From Volutella citrinella (taxonomy: Eukaryota > Ascomycota > Sordariomycetes > Hypocreales > Nectriaceae): a stretch of 64,000 bases of DNA. This document shows, in pieces, positions 9,622 through 64,000 of this stretch; positions within the stretch are counted from its first letter, which is position 1; every line of letters begins with the position of its first letter. The notes beneath the pieces are model-generated. The model was not told the origin of the DNA, made no database searches, and saw nothing but the letters and a program-made list of their open reading frames with translations. The stretch spans positions 1 to 64,000 of the forward strand of contig JAWZSP010000016.1 of NCBI GenBank assembly GCA_034401135.1, read 5' to 3'. A program made the position numbers and the translations under genes.

Positions 9622-9668
9622 ACATTAAAGTATTATTAATGTTATTAGATTGCATAGGGACTATATGT
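9622..9668 (+). repeat. 47-bp direct repeat, left copy (flanks orf172)
   Basis: This segment recurs at 10162-10208 with a single mismatch (A/G at its seventh base). The two copies lie 540 bp apart and bound orf172; this copy supplies the ORF's possible start codons. Confidence 0.92.
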
Positions 9669-10168
9669 ACATACATACCGATTATTCAAAAAAAAAATTA
9701 ATAGATTATACAATAACTACTATGATCTTATTAAAAACAATTTATAACTATTTGTGTTTAGATGCACCTAAACCTCATAAGTTTACTACTCTAAACTTAA
9801 AAAGCTCTTTAGCTGAAGTAACTGAAATTTCATCTAAAATTAGCGAATTATTACCTCAAATTACTGATTTTATTCATCAATTCAATACTCTTATTAACAC
9901 TAATAGTATTAGTGTTATAACAGACACAATTGGAAATATGGAAATCGAAGGTCCAGCTACTCTGTCTGACGCAGATTTAAATAAAATAGGTAAAAGAATA
10001 GGTATAATAGATCGTTTAATTACTGCTAGGGGTGAACAGATCAGTGATTTAATCCATAAAGGGTTAGAGCTTGAAGCAAAGTTAAAAAAAGAAGATCTTA
10101 ATTATACTTCTCAATTAGTTGAAAAAATTAATGAGTTTAAGAGATTAAAATTATCTTATAAACATTAG
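9650..10168 (+). CDS. Unknown accessory ORF, 172 aa, coiled-coil
   Basis: I do not recognise this gene. The open frame runs to TAG at 10166-10168; it could start at TTG 9650 or at the ATG at 9665 (five codons later), both within the left 47-bp repeat. After a short hydrophobic segment comes YLCLDAPKPHKF, which resembles the DAPxP N-terminal motif of Cox2. The rest is predicted to be helical with two heptad-like regions (about residues 48-80 and 113-170, Lys/Glu-rich at the end). There is no LAGLIDADG or GIY-YIG motif, so it is not an obvious homing endonuclease. The stop codon lies in the right repeat, so the repeats enclose the ORF exactly. Confidence 0.55.
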   Translation: MHRDYMYIHTDYSKKKLIDYTITTMILLKTIYNYLCLDAPKPHKFTTLNLKSSLAEVTEISSKISELLPQITDFIHQFNTLINTNSISVITDTIGNMEIEGPATLSDADLNKIGKRIGIIDRLITARGEQISDLIHKGLELEAKLKKEDLNYTSQLVEKINEFKRLKLSYKH

Positions 10169-13924: not shown

Positions 13925-14040
13925 TACAAATTAGATTGTGGATAGTAAAGCTATCTTCGTTAAAATCGGATAGATAGCAACAAATTGAATAGATAGAGCT
14001 ATCGTCTTTTATGATATAAAAGTATTCAAGTTTATAGCGG

Positions 14041-14079
14041 TATAAAATGTCATGAACTACCTATTTATGTAAAAGCACC
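14041..14079 (+). repeat. 39-nt inverted arm, second copy
   Basis: It is the reverse complement of 11733-11771 with two mismatches. Confidence 0.85.
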
Positions 14080-14088
14080 GTTATAACC

Positions 14089-14238
14089 AACAATACGATT
14101 TTAGGGTAAAAAGGAGGAGTAGGTGGATTCCCTGCCCTTCTTAAAATCATACATAATCTCCCAGGAGATTGAACATAGTAATATAAATACTAATAATATT
14201 TATTTTGCCAATAATTCCTGATATCAAGAAATATACCC
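14089..14238 (+). repeat. 150-bp dispersed element, copy upstream of atp6
   Basis: It is the direct-repeat partner of 11783-11931, about 2.3 kb away, ending 91 bp before atp6. Confidence 0.85.
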
Positions 14239-14329
14239 ATATTATTATAATTAATCTATTATACTCTAAAACCATAGGATGTAATAGAGGAATTACTAAA
14301 AATAATATAATTTAATTCATAAAAAAAAT

Positions 14330-15106
14330 ATGAAAAATAATTTCTTTACAGAAATTATAAGTCCCTTAGATCAGTTTGAAATAAGAGACGTATTACACTT
14401 AGAAATTTTAAGTGGTAATTTCCACTTATCATTAACAAATATAGGATTATATTTAACTATAGGTGCTTTAATTATATTAACTTTAAGTATAGTTTCTACT
14501 AACTATAACAAATTAGTAAGTAATAATTGATCTATAGCTCAAGAATCTTTATATGTTACTATTCATAACATAGTAACAAATCAAATAAATGCTAGAAATG
14601 GTCAAATTTATTTCCCATTTATTTATACTTTATTTGTATTTATATTAATAAATAATTTAATAGGTATGGTTCCTTATAGTTTCGCATCAACAAGTCATTT
14701 TGCATTAACATTTGCTCTTAGTTTTACAATAGTATTAGGTGCTACAATTTTAGGATTCCAAAAACATGGATTAAAATTCTTTTCTTTATTAGTACCAGCT
14801 GGTTGCCCATTAGCTCTTTTACCTTTATTAGTTACTATAGAATTAATTTCATACTTAGCTAGAAATGTTTCATTAGGTTTAAGATTAGCCGCTAATATTA
14901 CAGCCGGTCATATGTTATTAAGTATATTAAGTGGGTTTGTTTATAATATAATGAACTCAGGATTTATATTCTTTGTTTTAGGTTTAATACCATTAGTATT
15001 TATTATCGCTTTTTCAGGATTAGAATTAGCAATAGCCTTTATTCAAGCTCAAGTATTTGTAGTTTTAGCCTCTTCATATATAAAAGATGGTTTAGATTTA
15101 CATTAA
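14330..15106 (+). CDS. atp6: ATP synthase subunit a (subunit 6)
   Basis: This 258-residue membrane subunit forms the proton half-channels next to the c-ring. The essential arginine is Arg185 in SLGLRLAANITAGHML, and the late helix GLELAIAFIQAQVFVVLASSY is conserved. An N-terminal segment of about ten residues before SPLDQFEIRD is probably cleaved on assembly in fungi (family knowledge). It has an ATG at 14330 and TAA at 15104-15106, and one TGA-coded Trp at about residue 67. No intron. Confidence 0.97.
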
Positions 15107-15659
15107 TTAAATATACAAAAGTTACTATATTCACTGCTATAGTGATAAATAGATTCTTGAAGAAAACTTTTATGGTACATAAAGTATATTATACTTTATA
15201 AATTAAAAATATTAATAAAATTGTTTGATTAATATAGTAATCATAAGAGAAAAGCGAAATATCCGCATATAATGGATATATAAGAACCAGAGGAATATAT
15301 ATACTAGTTATATTGTAACATATAATTATAAATATATAGGTAAACGAAGGAAAGTTATGTAAACAATAGTGCAAATCCCCTTCAACAAGGGAATTAGGTA
15401 AAATATATGGTCTTTTATATACAGAAAATAGTATAGAATTATTTATATAATTCACATAAAAAAAGCGGACAATTGCTCAGATTGTAGAAAAGTATTTTTA
15501 GTAATTTTCACGGTAAATAGCTTATAGTTTATCTATATATATAATTTAACATATATGTTTATAGGATAGCTAGTATAAAGGATGCGAAAGAACATCCCCT
15601 CAAAAACATCACTGATTAATACTTAGATCAGTTAGTGATATAAATTATATTATATCAAA
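15107..15659 (+). other. Noncoding spacer atp6-rns
   Basis: This 553-bp spacer is A+T-rich, with an inverted repeat TCACTGCTATAGTGA near 15130-15144 and short hairpins around 15385-15400. No tRNA or ORF on the + strand is supportable. Part of it is presumably the rns precursor leader. Confidence 0.55.
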
Positions 15660-20059: not shown

Positions 20060-20131
20060 AAGAGTATAGTTTAATTGGCAAAATAGGAAGCTTCAACCTT
20101 CAAATTCTTGGTTCGAGTCCAAGTACTCTTG
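20060..20131 (+). tRNA. trnW(tca): tRNA-Trp (anticodon TCA)
   Basis: Acceptor AAGAGTA/TACTCTT and anticodon loop CTTCAAC give TCA. It reads UGA as well as UGG, which directly supports translation table 4. Confidence 0.94.
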
Positions 20132-24831: not shown

Positions 24832-25565
24832 AAATAAAGGAGTGTATAATATAAATTATATTCGCTCTTAAATATATATATAATAAAAATGAAGACATAG
24901 TCTGAACCATTTCGAAAGAAATGGAAATAAATAACCTTAGTTCAATAAATGACTAACGGTTATATATATGATAACACATAGAACAGGCTAATTTGCGCAA
25001 GAGTGTACAAAATGAGTGCGCGGTTTGGCACCTCGATGTCGGCTTAACTTATCCTCATGGATGCAGGAACTATGTAGGGTGCGACTGTTCGTCGATTAAA
25101 AAGTTACATGAGCTGGGTTAAATACGTCGTGAGACAGTATGGTTTCTATCTTCTAGGGGGAATTAGAATATAATAAGAACTAACTTTTGTACGAAAGGAA
25201 CAGGAAGAATTTAACTTGTAAAAGGGTTAAATAATAGTTACTAATCTATGGTTTACCTGTTGTCTATATGCCCAAATATTAAATATATATAATTTTATAT
25301 ATATCTTGTACTTTATGTACATAGGGATGTTTCTCTCACTAAGATAAATATATAGTATAGGCACGGCAGGAAAGCTAAGTTGGTTAAGGATAAGTGCTGA
25401 AAGCATATAGGCACGAAGCTTATCTTAAGATATTTCTTAAATATGCGTAAAATATTATTACGAATTATTATAGGCTCTATCCGTACGAATCTTGAGATTT
25501 TTAAGAATAGAGTACTAATTTCATAAATAACTATTTATAAATATATCTTATCTTTAACAAGAATT

Positions 25566-25636
25566 GCCTGATTAGCATAAAAGTAATGCAATTGTTTTGT
25601 AATCAATAGAAGTAAGCGCGATACTTACATTGGGCT
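25566..25636 (+). tRNA. trnT(tgt): tRNA-Thr (anticodon TGT)
   Basis: Acceptor GCCTGAT/ATTGGGC, D-arm GCAT/ATGC and anticodon loop TTTGTAA give TGT. The T-arm GTAAG-CGCGATA-CTTAC has a loop lacking the usual TTC, and the innermost anticodon-stem pair is U-U. Confidence 0.83.
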
Positions 25637-25641
25637 TTATA

Positions 25642-25663
25642 GTGCATGCATACATGCATGCAC
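25642..25663. repeat. 22-nt palindrome after trnT
   Basis: The arms GTGCATGCAT and ATGCATGCAC are exact reverse complements around AC. Confidence 0.85.
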
Positions 25664-25758
25664 GTCAGGATAATTAGATTATCCATTTAATTACCTAATT
25701 TAATATAGAATTAGGCAGACTATAATTTAGCATTTAATTTGTTTGTATATTACCCTAA

Positions 25759-25830
25759 GGATTAGTAGTCAAGTGGTAAGACATAGCTCTTTCAATGCTA
25801 CCATCGTAGGTTCGAATCCTATCTAGTCTA
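25759..25830 (+). tRNA. trnE(ttc): tRNA-Glu (anticodon TTC)
   Basis: Acceptor GGATTAG/CTAGTCT and anticodon loop CTTTCAA give TTC. T-arm GTAGG-TTCGAAT-CCTAT. Confidence 0.88.
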
Positions 25831-25831
25831 A

Positions 25832-25902
25832 GCGGATTAGTGTAATAGATAACACGTTCGGCTCATGTCCGAAAAAGTATTGGTGCAAGTCCTTTATCCG
25901 CG
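25832..25902 (+). tRNA. trnM(cat): tRNA-Met (anticodon CAT), first of three CAT tRNAs
   Basis: The anticodon arm TTCGG-CTCATGT-CCGAA is perfect and gives CAT. The acceptor GCGGATT/TATCCGC has a T-T at its base, and the T-arm ATTGG/CCTTT has two mismatches, so this is the weakest cloverleaf of the set. Confidence 0.8.
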
Positions 25903-25977
25903 TAGGGCTATAACTTAATCGGTAAAGTGTACTGCTCATAACAGTAATTATAAGTGTTCAAGTCACTTTAGCCCTAG
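25903..25977 (+). tRNA. trnM(cat): tRNA-Met (anticodon CAT), second of three CAT tRNAs
   Basis: Acceptor TAGGGCT/AGCCCTA and anticodon arm TACTG-CTCATAA-CAGTA give CAT. It starts at the base following the previous tRNA. Confidence 0.88.
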
Positions 25978-25978
25978 A

Positions 25979-26060
25979 ATCCGAGTGGTGGAATCGGTAG
26001 ACACGTCGAACTTAAGCTTCGATGCTTCAAAGCATGAAGGTTCAAATCCTTCCTCGGATA
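25979..26060 (+). tRNA. trnL(taa): tRNA-Leu (anticodon TAA)
   Basis: Acceptor ATCCGAG/CTCGGAT, anticodon arm TCGAA-CTTAAGC-TTCGA (TAA, UUR codons) and a long variable arm are seen. It lies 107 bp upstream of orfA. Confidence 0.93.
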
Positions 26061-26167
26061 TATCTATGTTTATAGGGGTATAACATAGATAGTAACTTAA
26101 CTAATAAAAATTAAACGAAATAAATTCTTAAAATTTACTAAAAATTACTTAAATTTAAACATTTACA

Positions 26168-29100
26168 ATGTTATTATTTTTAATTATATTCTACAATAGA
26201 GTAGTGTATTATACACTATATTGTAGTAATGTATATGTCTTGCCCAGGCATATACCCGGCATACACTGGGCCAATTTTTATAATATAAAAATTGTAAAAA
26301 ATATAGGTATTATATTTATTCATTTATTAAAATTAATACCGTGTGTATCATACATAGTGTTATGTTATGTTATAACCAAAGAAATAACAATTAACTATTG
26401 CATGATAGAAAATATAAATGATATACTATACCCTTTATTAAAAGGAGGAATAATAAAAATGAAACTTATCAATGGGACAAGTTACCTTTATCCATTAAAG
26501 TTAAAGTATTTCAATGGATGAATACATATAAATGTATTTATTTTAATGTATTTATGTATAATAATACCTATATTATTCATTATAAATAATATAATAGCAT
26601 GTATATTATACATATTAGCTTTTATTTTAATAAAAGCTATTTATACAAATTTTTGAAATAAACATATAGGGTTTTTATTGCATAAGTGACAAAATAGAAA
26701 TAAAAAGCAAGGACAATTTAAGCTATATATAGATTGAATCCGTAAAAATTATAAGTATTTACTTATAAAATTCATTCAAATATGAATTATTAGTTTTACC
26801 ATCGTCTCTTTAAATAGAAACGTTGTAAAATTTTTATTTGGGGTGCAAACTGATAACTTAATATCTTCTTTATTAATAGTGATTCTGGCTTTACCTGTAT
26901 CATTATTAATAATTAACATACTGGTGAAGAAATTAAAGAACGAAAAATTAATTCTTAATGATTTTTATATATTTAATGAATTTATTATAGAAAGAGTTAA
27001 CTTATATAGAATATTATATCTTATTTCTATAACAATTATCTATAAAAAGTATTACATATATTGAATTACTACAATAAGTATAATTATACCTATCATTATT
27101 ATGATATTAACATTATTATTTATACATTGAATAGTACAAAAAAAGGTATGAAAATATTGTAATTCTAAATGAACAAACTTCAATCTCTCGTTAAGTAAAC
27201 ATAATAAAATTGTAGAATATAACTCCCGTAAATTAAGTTTAAATTTGGAATCCCAATCGGATTCCTTTACCGTGGCAATATCTTCTATCATTGGGGTAGG
27301 AGGTGTATTTCAAAAAGCTTGTAATGATGGTTTAATAGATTTTTATAATGGAAACAAGGGACCTGGCTGAAAAAAAATTCATTTTTCTAATCCAGGTAAA
27401 TATTATTCCAATGGTACTGTAAATATACTCCATAAACCGCAGAATTATGTGCAAACAACTGAATATGATTCTATAATTGCAAAACATGAAGCTTATATAA
27501 ATAAATCACCTATACTTAAGATAACACATAGACAAAAAAAGGCTATAGATTGAGTAGTTGTTCCCCATAGTTATTTCAGTAATGAAACAGTTTATGGGTC
27601 AGTAGTACGAGTAAAAAAACATAATTTTTTTATAATTAATATTATTAGAAAAGATTGGGATGCTTGTGTATTTATGCCTTCATATTATTTACCCTTAGAC
27701 CGGTCTAATGGTTCTCAGGTAAAAATTGATGAAGTTCAAAATTTCTTTGTAAGAAAATATAATATAATGCTCCCTATCCAAAAAACCGCAAAGGAAAAAC
27801 CACGTACAGGTTTTATTGTGTTTACTCAAGCAGAATCTATTAACACAGGAGGGCCAAGCTCTGGTTTATTTAGACATTGAAGACCTTTCTTGGGTTACGT
27901 AGATACGGAATTTCTAGTAAAAAGACCAAATGTAAAAGATTATTATCATTTAGATAAGTTATCACACCTAAGAGTCAAAGGTTATAACAACCAGGAAATA
28001 ATTATGAAGTTAAAAACATATATAGCTAAATATTTAACTTTATCATCACTGAATGATAGAATTATATATGAATGTAAAGTTGACCTAGATTATACAAAGA
28101 TGTTGTATTACTTTTTACTTAAAGGTCAAAAATGCAATAAGGATAAATATTTTTGATTTCAAGAAGGTAAATGAGAGAATATATGTAAAAGAGAAAAAGA
28201 ACTAAACGAATTGTTTAAAAGGGAAGGAGCATCACCAACTTGGATTGAAAAAGCAATCCAAGAATCCAAAGAGAAACAAGAGGCAAAAGATAAAAAAGTA
28301 GAATTACAAAGAAAACAAAAGCTAGAAGAAATAAAAAAACTAGAGGCAAAAGATAGATCTGATAATCAGCTTGATATAGAACTTGTATCTTATGATCTAC
28401 TAGTTGAAGATATGAAAAATTTTAGGTTAACGGTCAAAAAACATGACTATAATAATAATTCTGCGAGCTCAAGGGCAGATGATCTTGTTTTAAGTCTTCG
28501 TCGTAGCTATCCTAAAGATTATTCAATATGAAATCATGAATTAGACTATTGTTTTTATTTACGTACAGCTAGGACAGGTTTAATAGAAGGTTTCAAAGGT
28601 AAAGGTCAAAAATTAGGAAATTGAGATGAAATTATGTACGTTCCATTATCTGAATCTCGAACCAATCTATGAAATACTATATACAAAAAGTATCAAAATG
28701 GAGGGGTGCATGCTAAGGAGAATATAAAGAGCGTATATTCTATTTGCATAACTAGATTGACTTTTGAATTTTTAGAGTTTAGATCATTTAGTGATGTAAA
28801 TTTATATGTGAATGATGATTCAGCTAAAGGTACTGAAGTTTATAGTATTATAGATACTCATAATCAAAATCTTAAGACTGTGTTAGAAACACCTCAGGGA
28901 AATCAAGAGATTCAATTACCTAAAGATAATTATAATTTTTTTAACGATATTGATGAATATTCTATAAGAAAAGTTATGGATCTTTTATACAGATGTCCAG
29001 ATAAGGATCTGTATTATCATTCAAATTTCTTAAATGAATTTTGAGATGATAAGGTAAAACTGTCCTATGAGAAAAAATTTAATAAATTTGCTAGTAAATT

Positions 29101-29824
29101 TATGGTTAAAAAATTACTGGATCAGCATATTGCTGAAGTAGTAGAGGCAAAAAAACCAAAGGTTTTCCCCTGAGGTAAAGTAACTGAAGAGGATATAACT
29201 GCATATTTTGACGCTAAAAGTACTATACGTAATATATGGACAACATCAGGAGGACTTAATCCTATAGATCCGTTAGACCAGGAAGTATTACGATCGAAAG
29301 CACGTGAAAATATTCAGCACAACAAAGTAGTGGCCCATAATCAAGCTACAGGTGTAACCCAAAAATACTCACCTCGTCCATCGAATGCCTATAAAAGAAG
29401 TGTAAAATTGAGAGTATGTGAAGCAGCTTACGAATCTAGAAAAAAATTAGATAAATCTAAAGCTGCGGTAGCAGCTAAAGAGGTTGAAATAGCCAAGGAA
29501 AAAGTTGAAAAAAGAGTAGCTGCTCCATTAGAAGCTAATTTAACTAAAACTTTAGAATTGGATAAAGAGAACACTAGTACCGACCAGTGAGCAGTTTCAG
29601 AAGACGTAGGTTTAAATCTAGATCTCTCTCCAATATTGGATGATATTTACGTTGAACCTAATACAGAGGAGGCGCAAACTCACTCTGAGGAATTTAGTTC
29701 TGTTCTTTTGGGAAGAATGGAGGAGGAAAATTGATTTGGCCTTCCTTCGCGTGCATATCAAGATTTTATGTATGCACCTGGAACTGATACTATAGAAGAC
29801 GAGGATATATATTCGGCAAATTAG
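26168..29824 (+). CDS. orfA: 1218-aa membrane protein of unknown function
   Basis: Read with TGA=Trp, one uninterrupted frame runs from ATG 26168 to TAG 29822-29824. I do not recognise the family. Residues 1-330 hold about six to eight hydrophobic segments, with the NEFIIERVNL motif at 270-279. A hydrophobic Gly/Val stretch (FTVAISSIIGVGGVF) comes next, then a soluble domain containing FTQ (about 555) and W571-R-P. Residues about 670-735 and 1075-1136 are Lys/Glu/Ala-rich likely coiled coils; YSIID is at 892-896, and the tail is acidic. orfB and orfC share the membrane part, the TQ...WRP domain and the Y-x-I-I-D motif. Trp is coded by both TGA and TGG (27656, 28241, 29237), unlike core genes. 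It starts 107 bp after trnL and ends about 215 bp before trnA. Confidence 0.75.
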
Positions 29825-30039
29825 GTATAAAATCTCTCTCCGATGGAGGGCAAGCATACTATTGTATGAATTTTATATTTGGTATAATGAATAATAATAT
29901 TTAGAAAAGCTTCTCGTTTAGAAATTAGTGGGTATATATGCTATTAGCATAGCTAAGCTAACGCTTTAAATTTTTAATTAATTATTTTACAGTATAGTAT
30001 AAAATAATATATATAAGTACATCGTATACTTATATATTA

Positions 30040-30110
30040 GGGGATGTAGTTTAATGGTAGAACTCCAACTTTGCAAGTTGGCTATCTTGGTTCGATTCCA
30101 AGTATCTCCA
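30040..30110 (+). tRNA. trnA(tgc): tRNA-Ala (anticodon TGC)
   Basis: Acceptor GGGGATG/TATCTCC and anticodon arm CCAAC-TTTGCAA-GTTGG give TGC. Confidence 0.93.
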
Positions 30111-30113
30111 AAC

Positions 30114-30186
30114 GCTCAGGTAACTCAATTGGTAGAGTGAAGCATTGAAGCTGCTTCTGTTGTAAGTTCGAGTCTTACCCTGGGCA
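30114..30186 (+). tRNA. trnF(gaa): tRNA-Phe (anticodon GAA)
   Basis: Acceptor GCTCAGG/CCTGGGC and anticodon arm AAGCA-TTGAAGC-TGCTT give GAA. It is 62 bp upstream of orfB. Confidence 0.93.
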
Positions 30187-30248
30187 CGGGTAATCCTAAT
30201 CCCGCCAGCGTAAGCTAAAAAATTTAGAAGATATATAAACATAAACAC

Positions 30249-32380
30249 ATGACAAGACACACATTTAATAATAAAAATAGTCTATTTACTAGACCCAATT
30301 GAATAATAATTGTAAATATAATTATTACTCTCTTAATTTTAAGTTTGCTATTTATAGCAAACGATTCTTTGGTAATAAAATTATTTTCTTTATGAGATAA
30401 TGAATTATCAAGAATTATTTATATCAACAAAGTAAATTGTGTTGAATATTTTCAATACCAGGGAAAAATATAGGTATAAATATATTTACGTTTTTGGTAT
30501 TAGTATTTAATTTCGAAATGATTATCATAAAGCTATGTATATTATTATGTCAAAATTTTAATATAATTTTGTTAATATTATTAAGTTTATGGTTTTCGAC
30601 AGCTCTTACTAAAAACTTTTGAGCTAAGCATATTTTAAAATCTAATGCAGATCTTATTTCTAAATTCTTTTATGTATTAGAAAATAAAAAATATACTTTT
30701 ATATTAGTAAGTATTGCTATTACAATATTCATTGTTTTTATTAGCAGACTAATAAGTAGAAGTGCAGTATGTTTTTTATTAGGAGGGGTAAACCCTTCTT
30801 TGGATATATTATCTTATAGTTTAATGATATTACTGTCTTGACCTTTATTATGATATATGGCTAATATTATACAAAAGTGACTAGGAATAGGGCAGAAGGG
30901 GAAATCTACGTATTCCAAACAACGACTAACGGATGTAGATTTTGAATTTTGTAATCCCTATGTAGTAGAAAAAGTAAATTTATATGCAATAAGTTTGAAT
31001 TTAATAATAAATTATTTAATAACTATTAATTTGTATTGATCAAGTATATTTATATGTATAATAATATGTATTTCTTATCTTCTAATAAAGTATGGAAACG
31101 ATATATTTATGTATTGTATATATATAAATCCAGCAAATATTATGTTATTTTCGAGTGGTGCCACTTGAGAGGGGCTTTTAGCGATAGCTGCAGTTTTATC
31201 TACCGGTTTAGCAGAAACTGATTGATCGACGGTTGGTACTAACAGTATTGTCTACCGTAATCACCACGAGGAATTCATTAATGGTACTTGAAATTGATAT
31301 TCAGGACACGGAAGTAGAATAAGACCAGGTAGAGCGTTCAGAGAATATAATAAAGACGAGAGCTTACGTAACTTACGTTCTCAAACACGTCAACTCCTTA
31401 ATGATAATGGGGTACATTTACCTTATATTCAATATAAGTATAATACATCTTTTTCTGCACCAAAATTTCAAGGTTTCAGCTTAAATTCTTACATAACCCA
31501 TGATTCTAATACCTTAATTATGTTTATAAGGAGTTATCAGGACAATAGTGTAAAATATGTACCAAGTTTCTTTAATGATCCTGGTTTGAAAAATGTTGAT
31601 AGGGACCTAAGAGAAAAATTTGGAATATTTACACTTGATCCCCATAAATATTCTTCTTTAATATTATTTACTCAAGAACATAAAATAGAGGATTCTCCTT
31701 TTGTTAGGGTTTGAAGACCGCTCTCTTATTCACACATGCCTTTTAGGGATAGACAAAAAAATAATTATTTTCATTTAGGCATAGACACAACTAGAAGCGA
31801 GACTTCAATGGCTGGTACTATTCCTAGAATTGAATATGCAAAAACTTTACTTGCCTCAAAGTTAGATGATTATCATAAATGACAATATGTAAATGCCATA
31901 ATAGAAGAATTCGTAGTATATTATGTATGACTAGCTAAGAAAAATAATGACGGTCGTTTCGACGTAAACCTATCTACAGGATATACTGAGGGCTGGCTAA
32001 AAGATATCTATATAAATTACCATGATTGAGGATGAAGTCGTAAGTTACTAACTCATAACAAGAATCATAATTTGAGATTGTATAAAAAAGATTTGGTAGC
32101 TCAACCTGGGTTTTGAGAGGTTACTGACAGGATTTTTGTGGGTAATGTTGACAAATTAGATTTTGAGGCTCATGAGCTGATCAATGAAGATACAGGGAAA
32201 GAATTATATAGTATAATTGATACCCGTAACACCCTTAGATGAGAAAAAATATCTGATGGGGAAAACAAAGAATTTGTTTTATATAAAGATTCTTATAATA
32301 TTTTTAATGATGAAGATAATACTTCAATAATCCAAATTATAGGTAATCACTTTAATTGCACAAAGAAAGAATTTGATTAA
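30249..32380 (+). CDS. orfB: about 710-aa membrane protein of unknown function, one -1 frame change
   Basis: The reading frame starts at ATG 30249 and codes 73 residues with a membrane helix (WIIIVNIIITLLILSLLFIA). It then meets TAG at 30471-30473. The long remainder (30467-32380, TAA at 32378) is in the -1 frame, and the two join exactly at G-GGA-AAA (30461-30467), a canonical -1 slippery heptamer. Both parts are supported by the same layout in orfC. Further membrane helices, NPYVVEKVNL at about 236-245, a Gly/Ala-rich segment (LLAIAAVLSTGLA), FTQ followed by W489-R-P-L-S-Y, and Y654-S-I-I-D are shared with orfA and orfC. Alternatives are a one-base deletion in the A5 run (error or mutation). 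A TGG Trp codon occurs at 30590. Confidence 0.65.
30461..30467 (+). promoter_or_regulatory. Possible -1 ribosomal slippery heptamer in orfB
   Basis: G-GGA-AAA is in the correct phase relative to the upstream frame, is followed six bases later by the zero-frame stop TAG, and a -1 slip leads straight into the 637-residue downstream frame. I see no strong stem directly downstream. Confidence 0.4.
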
Positions 32381-32470
32381 TCCTAAACCAGTTAATAATA
32401 ATTAAATTTTTATATATTACTTAATATTTATCTTTAAGTATAAAGTAGAAATAATAATAATTTCTACAAA

Positions 32471-32543
32471 GGAACTTTAGTATAATGGTGAATGCATATG
32501 ACTTTTAATCATCAAAATGTAGGTTCGAATCCTGCAAGTTCTA
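32471..32543 (+). tRNA. trnK(ttt): tRNA-Lys (anticodon TTT)
   Basis: Acceptor GGAACTT/AAGTTCT, T-arm GTAGG-TTCGAAT-CCTGC and anticodon loop CTTTTAA give TTT. It separates orfB from orfC by 90 and 47 bp. Confidence 0.9.
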
Positions 32544-32590
32544 AGTCTATTCACTCTAAAAGTGGTAGACCATCCAAAAATAACTATACT

Positions 32591-34855
32591 ATGAAAAAAA
32601 TTTTAATTACTTTATGAAAAAATATAGAAAATATAATTATGGCTTTGATTAGAAATTTTACAGGTTTAAACCATAGAGAGGTTTTAAGCCTATATTCTTT
32701 CAATAATAAATTTAAAATTTATAAATCATATAAATGGTTTAACTTAAAGAGATATAAACAATTAATTGAATGAACAATTAAAATAATATTGTTTATCTCT
32801 TTCTTTAGTATAATTTCTATATATATAGAAATCGAAATACCACCTAACCTAGAACAACATAAAAATATGTTGTCTTTGGATTTTAGGGATTCAATTATAG
32901 AAACACTAGGAACTATAAAAGCATCAAATTCCGTACGTGTTCTAACTTTCATATTAATATATGGAAATTTACTAAGTATAAATATGGGAATAATATTTAT
33001 AAAATTCTTTATACAGAATACCTGCTTATTTATTTTATTATTTTTAAGCTGAAATTTCATAATAACATTTATGGACCAATTTATACAAAAGCATGTAAAC
33101 ATAACTAAATTTATTAGTCAATTTTTACATAAGTTTCCTTTTGATTGAGTATATTCCAATTCAGGCATATCTTTTCTAAAAGTAAAAAGTATTATTATGA
33201 ATATTCTATTTATAATGTTTATTTATCTATTTATAAGAATGATTTTATACAATGTAGGTAGTTTTTTATTAAATAATCCAGATGTTCATGATTATACTGC
33301 CTGTGGTTTAATAATGTTATTATTTTTACCTTTATCTTTATACTTGTTTAATATATTAACCAAACTTTTAAAAAAAAAGAAGTTAATGGATGAAGATTAT
33401 TTATTCCATAATGAATTTGTAGTAAAAGGAGTAAACCTCTGTACAATATCTATTATTATAATTATAAATTTATTAAAAAATTATAATTTATTATTTTTTA
33501 GTATATGCGTGTTAATTTTATTGGTTTTTATGTATCTTCTAACGGAAGAAAAAATGCAATATTTTTGAATTTCTTATATAAATAGTAACAAGTTTATTCA
33601 GTCTACACTACAGGCAAAATTACCCTTTATGGATTTCGTATACACAGCCGCTAGTTTATGTGGAGCAATAGCGTTAATGGATCCCCCTAGTATTAATCTT
33701 GACGAAATGGTGACGGGATATAGAAAAACAACTACTATTAGTGGTTGTGAAAATATTTATGATTATGGGGATAGAATAAATATTCAAAAATCATTTATAA
33801 ATGATAATGATTTTATTAAATTGCAAAAAACAACACTTCATCACCTAAATACCGGACAGAGAGGGGGAATTCCTGATTATAACCATATGTCAATGTTTAA
33901 AAGCGATAAATTCATAGGGTATACCCTTAAGCCTTATGGGTGTAATATTAAGAAACCCGTGATTATGGTTATAAAAGATATTAATTCTAGCACTCTAAAA
34001 TATTCTCCTAGTTTATTTAAAGATAATTTTGCAAAAGTTAGTGCAGATCTTAAAAATAAATATGGAATATTTATAGAGAATTCATCAAAATATAGATCTT
34101 TGATATTATTAACTCAACGAATAGATATTGGAGATTCTTGTGCTAAGATTTGAAGACCTCTTTCTTATTACCATAGCCCTTCTACTCTTGAAAAATTTGT
34201 GTGAGATCGTGCCCTTAATATGGTTGTAGATCAGGAGCCTCCTGAAAATACTTATATAAGATATGGAGATTTTGAAATAAAAAGTCGTGTATTATATGAA
34301 TGTAGGAATGTAACTGCTAAAGTTATAGCGAAAACAGACCCTCAAGATATAAGAGGCTTTAATCAAGCAGCTAAAATGCTTTGTCGTTATAAGATGTTAG
34401 AATTATTTAATAAACCCGGTTTAGATCCAAAGAGTACTTTCGTGGAGAGCTATAATAAAAATTGCATGGTAGGATACATAAACTACCCAAATAAAAAAAT
34501 TTATGTAAATTTTGAGTATCTTGATCCAAGTTCGGAAAAATTCGACTATCAGCATAATAAGTTAGATATGGCTAGAGAAACTTTAGTTGAAAAAGTAAGC
34601 CAAGAAAGGGGCAACTCTTCAATAATTTATTTATTTAATGTGGATAAAACCGCATTTTCAATGCATACCATTGAATCGAGAGATAATAAATTATATAATA
34701 TAATTGATGAATCTAATTTCCTTGATCTTAATCTAAATAACATACATATTATTAATAAAAGTAGTTACTATGTCCATGGTGAAAGAGATGTTATTTCAAT
34801 ATTTAAATTATTAAATAAATTTGAATCACAAAGTGAACTTAATAAAAAAAAATAA
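32591..34855 (+). CDS. orfC: 754-aa membrane protein of unknown function
   Basis: With TGA=Trp one frame runs from ATG 32591 to TAA 34853-34855. It is the cleanest member of the three-ORF family. A basic N-terminal segment of about 65 residues is followed by several membrane helices (about residues 66-85, 115-160, 200-225, 235-255 and 284-310). NEFVVKGVNL is at 274-283, VYTAASLCGAIALM precedes the soluble domain, and KYGIF...LILLTQ leads into W521-R-P-L-S-Y. The C-terminus contains Y702-N-I-I-D and ends KKK. Function is unknown; the membrane layout suggests the inner membrane. It uses a TGG Trp codon at 32735 as well as TGA. It begins 47 bp after trnK. Confidence 0.75.
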
Positions 34856-35316
34856 TTTATTCATTAATCTTCCAGCGATTTTATTAAAGCTTTTTAAGGG
34901 GGGTATGTTTTAATAGGTAGATTAACCAGCTTTTTTACAAAAACCTTTGTAAAAAAATAAACAATGTCTATTAATATACCAAATAATCCATATTTATTAA
35001 AAAGTTTACTTAGATCTAATAGAAATATTCATTAATTGTTTTTAATTAAAAAATAGTGCTAAAAATATATTACATTTTTAATTATTCACAGACTTTATTT
35101 TTTTTTGTATAATCTTTTATCCATGTATAGGTAGGAATTATTTTCAGTTAGTTTTAATATAACGTAAAACTAATTTTAAGGGCTGAGTGTACATAGAAAA
35201 CTTTTCTATTAAATATAGGTTCTAACCAAGGAAGTTCTATAAAACTATGATTAATTATAAATAATTTAAAAAACTTAATTCAATAGAAATTTAAGTAAAA
35301 AATTATGTATAATTAA
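34856..35316 (+). other. Noncoding spacer orfC-trnL(tag)
   Basis: This 461-bp A+T-rich spacer contains one perfect hairpin (34931-34956) and a 23-codon mini-ORF starting at ATG 34964 (MSINIPNNPYLLKSL...) that I cannot support as a gene. It may be decayed remnant of the accessory ORF region. Confidence 0.55.
34931..34956 (+). terminator. Perfect 11-bp hairpin downstream of orfC
   Basis: TTTTTTACAAA (34931-34941) pairs with TTTGTAAAAAA (34946-34956) around AACC. It is placed 75 bp after the orfC stop, fitting a 3'-end or RNA-stability element. Confidence 0.5.
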
Positions 35317-35398
35317 GCAGGTATGCTGAAATTGGCAAACAGGGCCGCCTTAGGAGCGGTTGGCGAAAGCCTTACAAGTTCAAGTCTTGTTACCTGTA
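35317..35398 (+). tRNA. trnL(tag): tRNA-Leu (anticodon TAG)
   Basis: Acceptor GCAGGTA/TACCTGT, anticodon arm GCCGC-CTTAGGA-GCGGT (TAG, CUN codons) and a long variable arm are seen. Confidence 0.92.
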
Positions 35399-35465
35399 GA
35401 GATAACTCAATTTAGTTATCTTTTATAAAATATTGAAAATAGAAAAATGAAAAACCAGTATTTAA

Positions 35466-35537
35466 TCTCGGATCGACTAATGGGTAGGTCACGGATTTTT
35501 GATGTCTACAGTGAGTGTTCGAATCACTCTCCGAGAA
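35466..35537 (+). tRNA. trnQ(ttg): tRNA-Gln (anticodon TTG)
   Basis: Acceptor TCTCGGA/TCCGAGA and anticodon loop TTTTGAT give TTG; T-arm GAGTG-TTCGAAT-CACTC. Confidence 0.88.
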
Positions 35538-35561
35538 TAGATATACAGTCTAAACTAAAAA

Positions 35562-35635
35562 GGTAAATGTAGTTCAATCGGTGGAACGACTACTTGTGGC
35601 GTAGTATGCTCTCAGTTCAAGTCTGAGCTTTTACC
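35562..35635 (+). tRNA. trnH(gtg): tRNA-His (anticodon GTG)
   Basis: Anticodon arm ACTAC-TTGTGGC-GTAGT gives GTG. The extra 5' G opposite C73, the hallmark of tRNA-His, is encoded. Confidence 0.9.
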
Positions 35636-35670
35636 CTCAGAGTTAATACTCTTAAATTTTTATTGAATTT

Positions 35671-35741
35671 GCCTAGGTAGTTTAAAGGTAAAACCCCAAT
35701 TTCATGCATTGGCGATGAGAATTCGATTTTCTCCCAAGGCT
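35671..35741 (+). tRNA. trnM(cat): tRNA-Met (anticodon CAT), third CAT tRNA
   Basis: Acceptor GCCTAGG/CCAAGGC (one A-A), anticodon arm CCAAT-TTCATGC-ATTGG give CAT. It is 40 bp upstream of nad2. Confidence 0.88.
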
Positions 35742-35781
35742 GGTATTACATGTAAATATGTAATACTTTTTAATCAAAGCC

Positions 35782-37479
35782 ATGATTATACTTTCTATAT
35801 TATCTCTCTTATTAAGCAACGCCGTCACCCATAGACGAGATATATCAATACTATTTAATAGAATAGCGATATTAATTTTAACCTATTGTATCTTATTGGA
35901 TATTTCTTCTTTATCTATAATTAGTAAAGGAGTAGGTTTACATGGTGGTTTATTATTTATTAATAATATCACACAAATATTTCATATTTTCATATTTTCA
36001 ATTAGTATATTAATACTTCAATTGACTAGTTTTTATCCTAGAAAAGTCTGAGTTTCAGAACATTCATCTTTAAAAGATTTATTGTTACATAGATTTGTTT
36101 ATTACAATACTAAAATAATAAATAAAATGGGAGAACATTTAAAAATTATAGAATATCCTTTAATTATTTTATTTATTATAACTGGAGCAGTATTATTAAT
36201 GTCAACTAATGATTTAATATCCGTATTTCTTTCTATAGAATTACAGAGTTACGGTTTATATATATTAAGTACTATTTATAGAAATTCTGAATTATCAACT
36301 ACAGGTGGATTAATTTACTTTTTATTAGGGGGATTAAGTTCATGTTTCATTTTATTAGGAACTGCTTTATTATATGCTAATTCAGGTACAACTAGCTTAG
36401 ATGGTTTATATATTATTACTAGTATAAGTGATGTTAGCGCGTCACAAGCTATCAGTACAAATTTTTGATATTCTCCTTATTATATAAATCTATCTCTAGT
36501 TTTATTTAGTATAGGGTTCTTATTTAAAGTAAGTGCTGCACCATTTCATTTCTGATCACCTGATGTTTATGATGCTATTCCTACTATAGTAACAACATTT
36601 GTAGCAATAATTGCAAAAATATCTATATTTATTTTATTATTACATTTAGTATATTATACTAACAATAGTTTTTCAATACAAGCTAATGGAGGTACAAGTT
36701 GAACATTTATTTTATTAATTAGTTCAATATTCTCATTAATTATAGGAACTGTAGTAGGTTTGACTCAATTTAGAATAAAAAGATTATTTGCTTATAGTAC
36801 TATATCACATGTAGGATTCTTACTTTTAGCTTTAAGTATATCTAGTGTTGAATCAACTCAAGCTTTTATGTTTTACTTAACACAGTATTCTATCAGTAAC
36901 TTAAATGCATTTATGATATTAATAGCTATAGGATTCTCTTTATATTGCTATGTTAGTGAAAATAAAGAACATGAAGAATTAGTAGATAAAACTAATTCAC
37001 CAATACAATTAGTTAGTCAATTAAAAGGTTATTTCTATATAAATCCAATATTGGCTATAAGTTTAGCTATTACTATTTTCTCATTTGCAGGAGTACCACC
37101 TTTAGTAGGATTCTTTGGTAAACAAATGGTATTAAGTGCAGCTTTAGATAAAGGCTTAATATTCTTATCACTAGTTGCAATATTAACTAGTGTTATAGGA
37201 GGTATATATTATTTAGGTATAGTAAAAGAAATATTCTTCAGCTTACCTGAATATAAAATAAATCCTTTATTAGAGAATTTAGAATTAAAAGCTAATGTTT
37301 TAGACAATAACAGTAAATTAGTAAGAAAACTTAATTTTAACTATAAAAATATAACTATATCAAGTCCAATTTCTTTTGTTATTTCTACAATAACACTTGT
37401 TATATTATTATTTTTATTTATGAACAAAGAATGACTAAGCATGGGTACCATATTGGTACAAATTCTATTTAATAATTAA
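35782..37479 (+). CDS. nad2: NADH dehydrogenase subunit 2
   Basis: This 565-residue antiporter-like membrane subunit of complex I (NuoN family) takes part in proton pumping. The N-terminus [20 protein letters not shown] is typical of fungal Nad2, and the conserved [20 protein letters not shown] loop and [15 protein letters not shown] helix are present. It ends TAA at 37477-37479 and the ATG of nad3 follows with no gap. No intron is present. Trp residues are TGA-coded. Confidence 0.97.
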
Positions 37480-63810: not shown

Positions 63811-64000
63811 ATGTTATTATTTTTAATTATATTCTACAATAGAGTAGTGTATTATACACTATATTGTAGTAATGTATATGTCTTGCCCAGGCATATACCC
63901 GGCATACACTGGGCCAATTTTTATAATATAAAAATTGTAAAAAATATAGGTATTATATTTATTCATTTATTAAAATTAATACCGTGTGTATCATACATAG
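63811..64000 (+). CDS. orfA, N-terminal fragment cut by window end
   Basis: These are the first 63 codons of orfA (copy of 26168-26357), truncated only by the end of the window. Confidence 0.72.
   Translation, partial: MLLFLIIFYNRVVYYTLYCSNVYVLPRHIPGIHWANFYNIKIVKNIGIIFIHLLKLIPCVSYI

What the first reader, a model, noticed from the sequence alone, without database searches (positions are those of the whole stretch)
26168..34855. Three giant, tandem, diverged paralogous membrane ORFs of unknown function
Seen: with TGA=Trp, 8.7 kb (23% of the genome) resolves into orfA, orfB and orfC. All three carry a multi-span membrane N-terminus, an N-[EP]-[FY]-[IV]-[IV]-x-x-VNL motif at residues 270/236/274, a Gly/Ala-rich hydrophobic segment, a T-Q...W-R-P motif (W at 571/489/521) and a Y-[NS]-I-I-D motif (892/654/702). 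They resemble no respiratory, ribosomal, plasmid polymerase or homing-endonuclease family I know. Open frames of 750-1200 codons in such A+T-rich DNA argue for selection. Known: Fusarium mitogenomes hold a large uORF of unknown function in the same rnl-nad2 interval; this may be a split, multiplied relative. Inference: a lineage-specific inner-membrane protein family.
Basis: partly seen in the sequence, partly recalled or inferred. Interest (0 to 1): 0.88.

Follow-up and report, generated by a model that had tools for sequence, protein, structure and literature searches.

The report
Three related giant mitochondrial membrane proteins
A fungal mitochondrial genome carries three related, unusually large genes for probable membrane proteins of unknown function that have relatives in other sequenced samples; half of one of them differs strongly from its counterpart in a mitochondrion where the other two are almost the same, which makes an old puzzle about such genes in Fusarium more testable.

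Summary
The window is a fungal mitochondrial genome (37,643 bp, assembled as a dimer). Between rnl and nad2 lie three long reading frames, A (1218 codons), B and C (about 754). They are not chance: 300 Markov copies of the region gave at most 191 stop-free codons. They are one family: B and C share 27% identity over 669 positions (E 4e-31), and A joins them through B, also in the soluble part alone. A near-identical relative and more distant ones (A: 36%; B: 41%, two proteins) keep the frames open, so selection has kept these proteins. B is frame-broken near its start here; the relative has it whole. No convincing match in Pfam, NCBIfam, PHROGs, PADLOC or PDB sequences; both structure models failed. 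A sits exactly where Fusarium keeps its LV-uORF, but sequence kinship could not be tested. New: in a relative 99.4% alike in A and B, the soluble half of C is only about 64% identical (gaps counted), its membrane half 96%. Best reading: accessory inner-membrane proteins with a fast-changing soluble domain, perhaps acting in mitochondrial transmission or competition (mechanism inferred). The split-and-multiplied LV-uORF idea remains open.

The parts
26168..29824 (+). ORF A, 1218 codons (table 4): 6 hydrophobic spans up to residue 323, soluble part with T-Q...W-R-P (W571) and Y-S-I-I-D (Y892), tail ending EDEDIYSAN
   Evidence: relatives P0003 (1211/1218 identical) and P0004 (36%, 81% of query); the second copy starts at 63811
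30249..30473 (+). N-terminal piece of ORF B in another reading phase (74 codons, one hydrophobic span); its first 60 residues match the N-terminus of the intact relative P0006
30401..32380 (+). ORF B main open frame, 659 codons, first ATG only at codon 40; W-R-P and Y-S-I-I-D motifs
   Evidence: 645/649 identical to P0006; 41% to P0007 and P0008
32591..34855 (+). ORF C, 754 codons from the likely start (open frame reaches back to 32492, inside trnK); membrane part to about residue 364 of the 787-residue frame, soluble part strongly divergent in a close relative
25979..26060 (+). trnL(taa), left neighbour of A (the LV-uORF position of Fusarium)
30040..30110 (+). trnA(tgc), right neighbour of A
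30114..30187 (+). trnF(gaa), between A and B
32471..32543 (+). trnK(ttt), between B and C
35317..35398 (+). trnL(tag), right neighbour of C

Best explanation
A, B and C are an old family of mitochondrially encoded proteins with a multi-span membrane N-terminus and a large soluble C-terminal part. Shown: long open frames, common descent, relatives with open frames, fast and uneven change. Inferred: they are made, sit in the inner membrane, and are accessory rather than part of respiration. Most likely mechanism (inferred, about 0.3 on its own): the membrane part anchors the protein while the soluble part meets a variable partner, so that the family takes part in competition, compatibility or transmission between mitochondria or mitochondrial genomes that meet after hyphal fusion. 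This would explain selection to stay open together with fast protein change, the sharp divergence inside C, and the optional presence of large ORFs in this interval in Fusarium.
For: Frames far beyond chance. Paralogy: B-C E 3.6e-31, A-B 5e-8; profile comparison of the A family with the B/C family: probability 98.7%, E 5e-16, A residues 145-580; soluble parts alone: the A profile finds B_rel (P0006) at E 1e-7, the B profile finds C at 6e-31 and A at 2e-7, above all 200 shuffled controls. Open-frame relatives P0003-P0008. 40 invariant columns among 7 family rows. Five or six hydrophobic spans in full-length members. C versus P0005: change point at residue 374, 96% before and 64% after, 0 of 1000 permutations as strong; soluble/membrane divergence ratio 8.6 against 1.5, 1.5 and 1.3 in three other family pairs; Fisher P 7e-5 against the P0007/P0008 pair. 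A 1211/1218 and B 645/649 in proteins from a contig of the same length. Literature passages: the Fusarium LV region comes in variants that differ between strains, and some variants lack the LV-uORF (PMC5604515, PMC11633160); variant 2 moved between species (PMC7285627).
Against: No transcript, protein or phenotype data. Both AlphaFold models are unusable (mean pLDDT 38 and 36), so no fold supports any role. B is frame-broken here, which fits loss of function in at least one member. dN/dS above 1 for the A tail rests on a decayed nuclear copy and is also what drift in an unconstrained tail would give. The A profile does not lift C or its relative above shuffled controls in the soluble part, and A-C profile comparison there has 3% probability. 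That P0003, P0005 and P0006 lie on one contig is inferred from the same source and contig length (20160). In Fusarium the variant that carries the LV-uORF (variant 1) follows the core mitogenome (R 0.988, PMC7285627), and an experiment with paired F. oxysporum strains saw no exchange of mitochondria (PMC11633160): neither favours the proposed role.
Confidence: 0.45

Rival explanations
1. Cargo left by integrated mitochondrial mobile elements (linear plasmid or similar) that spread into tRNA gaps of this interval and multiplied; the proteins served the element, not the fungus.
For: Three family members in three tRNA gaps; tryptophan TGG occurs in A, B and C (4, 2, 1) but in 0 of 63 Trp codons of ten core genes plus rps3; Ilyonectria has an ORF called DNA polymerase B in the same interval (PMC8837645, passages); decayed nuclear copies of the A tail in circularly permuted order.
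Against: No significant match to a polymerase, endonuclease or other plasmid domain; no terminal inverted repeats around the ORFs among the 25 longest of 37 pairs shown, only scattered pairs such as 32616-32655/35767-35806; A, B and C types already distinct before P0004 and P0007/8 branched off (unrooted tree, inference); codon usage correlates 0.91-0.93 with core genes.
Confidence: 0.25
2. An accessory protein of ordinary mitochondrial work (assembly, membrane insertion, ribosome anchoring) that evolves fast because constraint is low.
For: Multi-span anchor plus charged soluble part; open frames kept over long divergence.
Against: No convincing match to any known factor; LV-uORF is missing from some F. 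oxysporum variants (PMC5604515, PMC11633160), if that gene is comparable; the sudden divergence inside C is not expected.
Confidence: 0.18
3. Non-functional open frames that drift, as proposed for the F. oxysporum LV-uORF.
For: B frame break; dN/dS 1.38/1.58 and no deficit of non-synonymous change in the A tail; PMC5604515 argues loss of function in F. oxysporum; PMC7214670 reports 21 of 34 LV-uORF SNPs non-synonymous and PMC6304159 all five.
Against: Relatives at 36-44% amino-acid identity with frames of 675-947 codons and conserved motifs would hardly survive drift; longest chance frame 191 codons. For Fusarium, PMC7214670 saw no nonsense change and no indel in the LV-uORF between two species, and PMC5604515 says that Al-Reedy et al. 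found purifying selection.
Confidence: 0.1

Closest known systems
Fusarium LV-uORF (large variable region ORF between rnl and nad2)
   Same: A lies in the same gap, trnL(taa)-trnA(tgc); very large frame of unknown function, no known domain (PMC5604515 passages; PMC7218506)
   Different: 1218 aa against 1931-2572 aa for long forms; here three paralogous ORFs in three gaps; sequence kinship untested
Free-standing ORFs of the Ilyonectria destructans mitogenome (rnl-nad2 interval)
   Same: Thirteen intergenic ORFs among the same tRNAs, ten without assigned function (PMC8837645 passages and table)
   Different: There 106-522 aa apart from ORF1210, which is called DNA polymerase B; A, B and C show no polymerase match; kinship untested
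Physarum mF plasmid and mtDNA SURFs
   Same: Unassigned mitochondrial ORFs, several with membrane spans; strains with the mF plasmid are reported to fuse mitochondria and recombine mtDNA (PMC10048350 passages)
   Different: Linear plasmid with terminal repeats and polymerases; no sequence comparison made here

Membership tests
One family A-B-C | Significant sequence similarity, also outside the membrane part | tested here: met
   (A to C only by way of B)
[quoted passage not shown]
   A only; PMC5604515 passage
Fusarium LV-uORF | Length about 1900-2600 aa | tested here: not met
   A 1218 aa; lengths from PMC7218506, which also reports eroded forms of 916 aa and less than 740 aa
Fusarium LV-uORF | Sequence similarity to LV-uORF proteins | not testable with these tools
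   no Fusarium LV-uORF in reach; searches returned only unnamed records (in 25 and 34 only the best 7992 and 7995 candidates were scored, so absence says little)
Fusarium LV-uORF | G+C above that of core genes | tested here: inconclusive
   worked out: A and B about 28%, C 25%; ten core genes about 22-33%; intergenic sample 27%
Linear mitochondrial plasmid | DNA polymerase B or phage-type RNA polymerase gene | tested here: not met
   no such Pfam hit at E up to 1; other genes of the window not scanned
Linear mitochondrial plasmid | Terminal inverted repeats | tested here: not met
   region 25500-36000, arms of 22 nt or more, 25 of 37 pairs shown
Homing endonuclease genes | LAGLIDADG or GIY-YIG domain | tested here: not met
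Respiratory or ribosomal proteins | Match to a curated family | tested here: not met

The most novel reading that the evidence does not exclude
A mitochondrially encoded recognition or conflict system: paralogous membrane anchors carrying exchangeable soluble specificity domains, of which C swaps or diversifies its soluble half between mitochondria that are nearly identical in A and B, deciding which mitochondrial genome survives or recombines after cells fuse.
Probability: 0.12. Interest if true: 0.92.

Novelty: new variant of a known kind. Interest (0 to 1): 0.6.

Why it matters
Whether the giant ORF in the rnl-nad2 interval of Fusarium is a gene or not is disputed in print (PMC5604515, PMC7214670). 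Here three paralogues with open-frame relatives give conserved columns, a domain layout (membrane anchor, soluble blocks with W-[RK]-P and Y-x-I-I-D) and a hypervariable half, so the question can be tested with a profile instead of single orphan sequences. If the soluble half of C really is exchanged between close mitochondria, it would be a candidate for mitochondrial recognition or competition in fungi.

Tried and rejected
Wrong step: I translated B in the wrong phase, so its A-B and B-C results are void; one search replaces them. A programmed -1 frameshift for B (in-frame heptamer GGGAAAA at 30461-30467) was considered and set aside: the intact relative P0006 changes phase upstream of it. 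The similarity of the B N-terminal piece to C was not significant (146 of 1000 shuffles as good); its place in B rests on P0006 and P0008. Repeat-induced mutation as cause of the nuclear copies' divergence: no excess of C-to-T and G-to-A changes. Weak hits not believed: IQGAP1 in PDB (E 0.004, B/C profile; gone with the wider profile), DUF7442 in one of three A-family members (E 0.005), Nucleos_tra2_N, PI-PLC-Y, DUF5065 and PPTA (0.035-0.13), PHROG 4804 in a hydrophobic stretch of P0004 and five further PHROGs (0.02-0.6). NCBIfam, PHROGs and PADLOC were run on six proteins (P0001, P0002, P0004, P0005, P0006, P0008). No relatives in viral contigs (4 scans: P0004, C, the B family, P0008), genome contigs (2 scans: A and B families), plasmids (A and P0006) or phages (P0006). 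Structure models of C (787 aa) and of A residues 361-959 had mean pLDDT 38 and 36, so no fold search was run. Paper searches; in their listings and in the passages read of 11 opened papers I saw no description of three paralogous ORFs of this kind, but subscription papers (Al-Reedy 2012, known to me only through citations) are not held. The species was not identified.
Full report
What the window is. The 64-kb window repeats with a period of 37,643 bases (26,357 of 26,357 overlapping bases identical). It is part of contig C16 (75,286 bases, two units head to tail) of a 45.1-Mb, 26-contig assembly; contig C26 (37,643) is a single unit. Both rRNA genes, 22 tRNA genes by ARAGORN in the first unit plus one seen only by Rfam at 25566-25636, and the standard protein genes in the order nad2-nad3-atp9-cox2-nad4L-nad5-cob-cox1-nad1-nad4-atp8-atp6-rns-cox3-nad6-rnl (gene names by my reading of the translations) make it a filamentous ascomycete mitogenome. 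The order fits Nectriaceae; the tRNA series E-M-M-L-A-F-K-L-Q-H-M, with the Rfam-only tRNA in front of it, matches that printed for Ilyonectria (TEMMLAFKDLQHM) except for the extra D (PMC8837645, passages). The species is not known.

The observation. A (26168-29824) and C (32492-34855) are open as stated; C probably starts at 32591 because its first codons overlap trnK. B is not a single frame here: the main frame opens at 30401 and the N-terminal piece lies in another phase at 30249-30473. All three units in the assembly (C16 twice, C26) agree there, and so does a mitochondrial piece at the end of contig C10, which has its only difference elsewhere, so a simple consensus error is less likely, though reads were not seen. 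A relative's protein, P0006, is whole (710 aa; 645 of 649 aligned residues identical to the main frame; its first 60 residues read the same as the N-terminal piece).

Not chance. In 300 order-2 Markov copies of the region the longest stop-free run in six frames was 191 codons (mean of the maxima 112); A, B and C have 1218, 659 and 787. Third-position G+C (0.19-0.20) is at the upper edge of the ten core genes counted (0.11-0.19), synonymous codon usage correlates 0.91-0.93 with them pooled, but TGG for tryptophan occurs only in A, B and C (4 of 25, 2 of 20, 1 of 8; 0 of 63 in ten core genes plus rps3; nad3, nad4L, atp8 and atp9 not counted).

One family. BLASTP: B-C 27.5% over 669 positions, E 3.6e-31; A-B 39.7% over 68 (residues 881-948 of A), E 5e-8, and 26% over 196, E 2e-6; A-C E 1e-3 in the membrane part. 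Profile comparison of A-family and B/C-family alignments: 98.7%, E 5e-16. Because membrane segments can mislead, the soluble parts were tested alone: the A profile finds P0006 at 1.1e-7, P0008 at 0.002 and P0007 at 0.012 (best of 200 shuffled controls 0.033) but not C or P0005 above the shuffles; the B profile finds C at 5.9e-31, A at 2e-7 and P0004 at 4e-4 (best shuffle 0.069); A to C by hhalign is 3%.

Relatives. Three searches of a 5.8-billion-protein set (all allowed; two of them scored only the best-ranked 7992 and 7995 candidates) gave: for A, P0003 (1211/1218) and P0004 (36% over 81%, E 9e-137, begins without Met, same tail end EDIYSA); for B plus C as a profile, P0005 (79% to C); for B, P0006, P0007 and P0008 (the last two 41% over 97%). 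An unrooted tree separates the A type (A, P0003, P0004) from B and C (support 1.0), B with P0007/P0008 (0.999) from C with P0005 (1.0); so the three types are probably older than these branchings. Frames of 675-947 codons kept at 36-44% identity speak for selection on the protein.

No known kind by sequence. Nothing convincing in Pfam, NCBIfam, PHROGs, PADLOC or PDB sequences (weak hits are listed under Tried and rejected). Two AlphaFold models were too poor to use. Hydropathy gives 5-6 spans in the seven full-length members, all but one of them within the first 240-350 residues, and a soluble remainder.

The surprising part. Between our mitogenome and the relative, A differs at 7 of 1218 residues and B at 4 of 649, but C at 152 of 779 aligned positions (gaps left out). 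The difference is not even: best change point at residue 374, 95.7% identity before, 63.7% after (gaps counted), reached by 0 of 1000 permutations. With the cut at 364 the membrane part differs at 14 of 362 and the soluble part at 138 of 417. The ratio of soluble to membrane divergence is 8.6, against 1.5 (P0007/P0008), 1.5 (P0006/P0008) and 1.3 (A/P0004, where little membrane part is held); it is 0.5 for A/P0003 with only 7 differences. The membrane part of C also changes more than A or B. Exchange of the soluble half with a divergent allele, strong diversifying selection, or a chimeric contig could each explain this; without DNA I cannot decide. P0007 and P0008 show the same pattern of variable stretches (around residues 257-370 and 494-576 of P0007) in milder form.

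Nuclear copies. Two nuclear pieces match the 3' end of A: C10:322103-323002 and C5:653990-654424. They are 98.7% identical to each other over 549 bases but 27-28% from the mitochondrial A in the main pieces. dN/dS (NG86, stop codons left out) is 1.38 and 1.58; synonymous codon changes are 18 against 22.4 expected (P 0.18) and 9 against 15.8 (P 0.03); stops are fewer than expected (4 against 8.7, P 0.05; 1 against 5.8, P 0.015). Where A and the nuclear copy differ, P0004 agrees with A 15 times, with the nuclear copy 13 times and with neither 82 times (C10 copy; C5: 11, 6, 64). So the A tail shows no purifying selection and seems to have changed about as fast as the copy; the two copies are not independent. 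Apart from two contig ends, nine other nuclear pieces of mtDNA were listed, 38-114 bases long (the lists are lower bounds).

Comparison with the known. [quoted passage not shown] for purifying selection, and itself argues it is non-functional in F. oxysporum. PMC7218506, PMC7214670 and PMC6304159 (passages) report variable frames, eroded in F. tricinctum, with many non-synonymous SNPs but no nonsense change between F. asiaticum and F. graminearum. PMC11633160 (passages) and PMC7285627 (passages and one section) report exchange of region variants between strains and species, mainly variants 2 and 3; variant 1, the one with the LV-uORF, follows the core in the F. fujikuroi complex. PMC6110257 (passages) states that two other Nectriaceae lack the F. 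graminearum large ORFs. A occupies the same gap; membership is otherwise untested. I therefore file A-C as a new variant of 'large unknown ORFs of the rnl-nad2 region', not as LV-uORF members.

Mechanism. Committed view: accessory inner-membrane proteins with a matrix or intermembrane domain that meets a changing partner, most plausibly in competition, compatibility or transmission of mitochondria after fusion of hyphae. Shown: family, open frames, membrane-type N-terminus, fast and uneven change. Inferred: expression, location, partner and role.

Noticed in passing
window 1-64000; G000 C16 and C26: The mitogenome is assembled both as a 75,286-base dimer and as a 37,643-base monomer; the only difference among the three units is A/T at 36727 in nad2.
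   Followed up: partly
L038:1-883 (G000 C10 left end): 883 bases of mtDNA (29852-30733, one 1-base difference) are joined directly to telomere repeats at the end of a nuclear contig, outside the telomere; probably a chimeric read end.
   Followed up: partly
G000 C7:20-1276: A second nuclear contig end carries mtDNA (window 14001-15257, 99%); whether it also lies beyond a telomere was not checked.
   Followed up: no
L022:4104-5003 and L023:4005-4532: Nuclear copies of the A tail stand in circularly permuted order in C10 (window 29774-29862, then 28962-29771), as if taken from a circle or tandem repeat of about 0.9 kb; the C5 piece is a near-identical duplicate of part of it.
   Followed up: partly
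9650-10168: A 172-codon free-standing ORF before nad1; PMC7285627 mentions an orf151 of unknown function in its Fusarium mitogenomes, possibly the same kind (kinship not tested).
   Followed up: no
32616-32655 and 35767-35806: A 40-base inverted repeat (88%) links the start of ORF C with the start of nad2.
   Followed up: no
20060-20131: ARAGORN calls a tRNA-SeC(tca); with TGA read as tryptophan this is trnW (naming by general knowledge).
   Followed up: no
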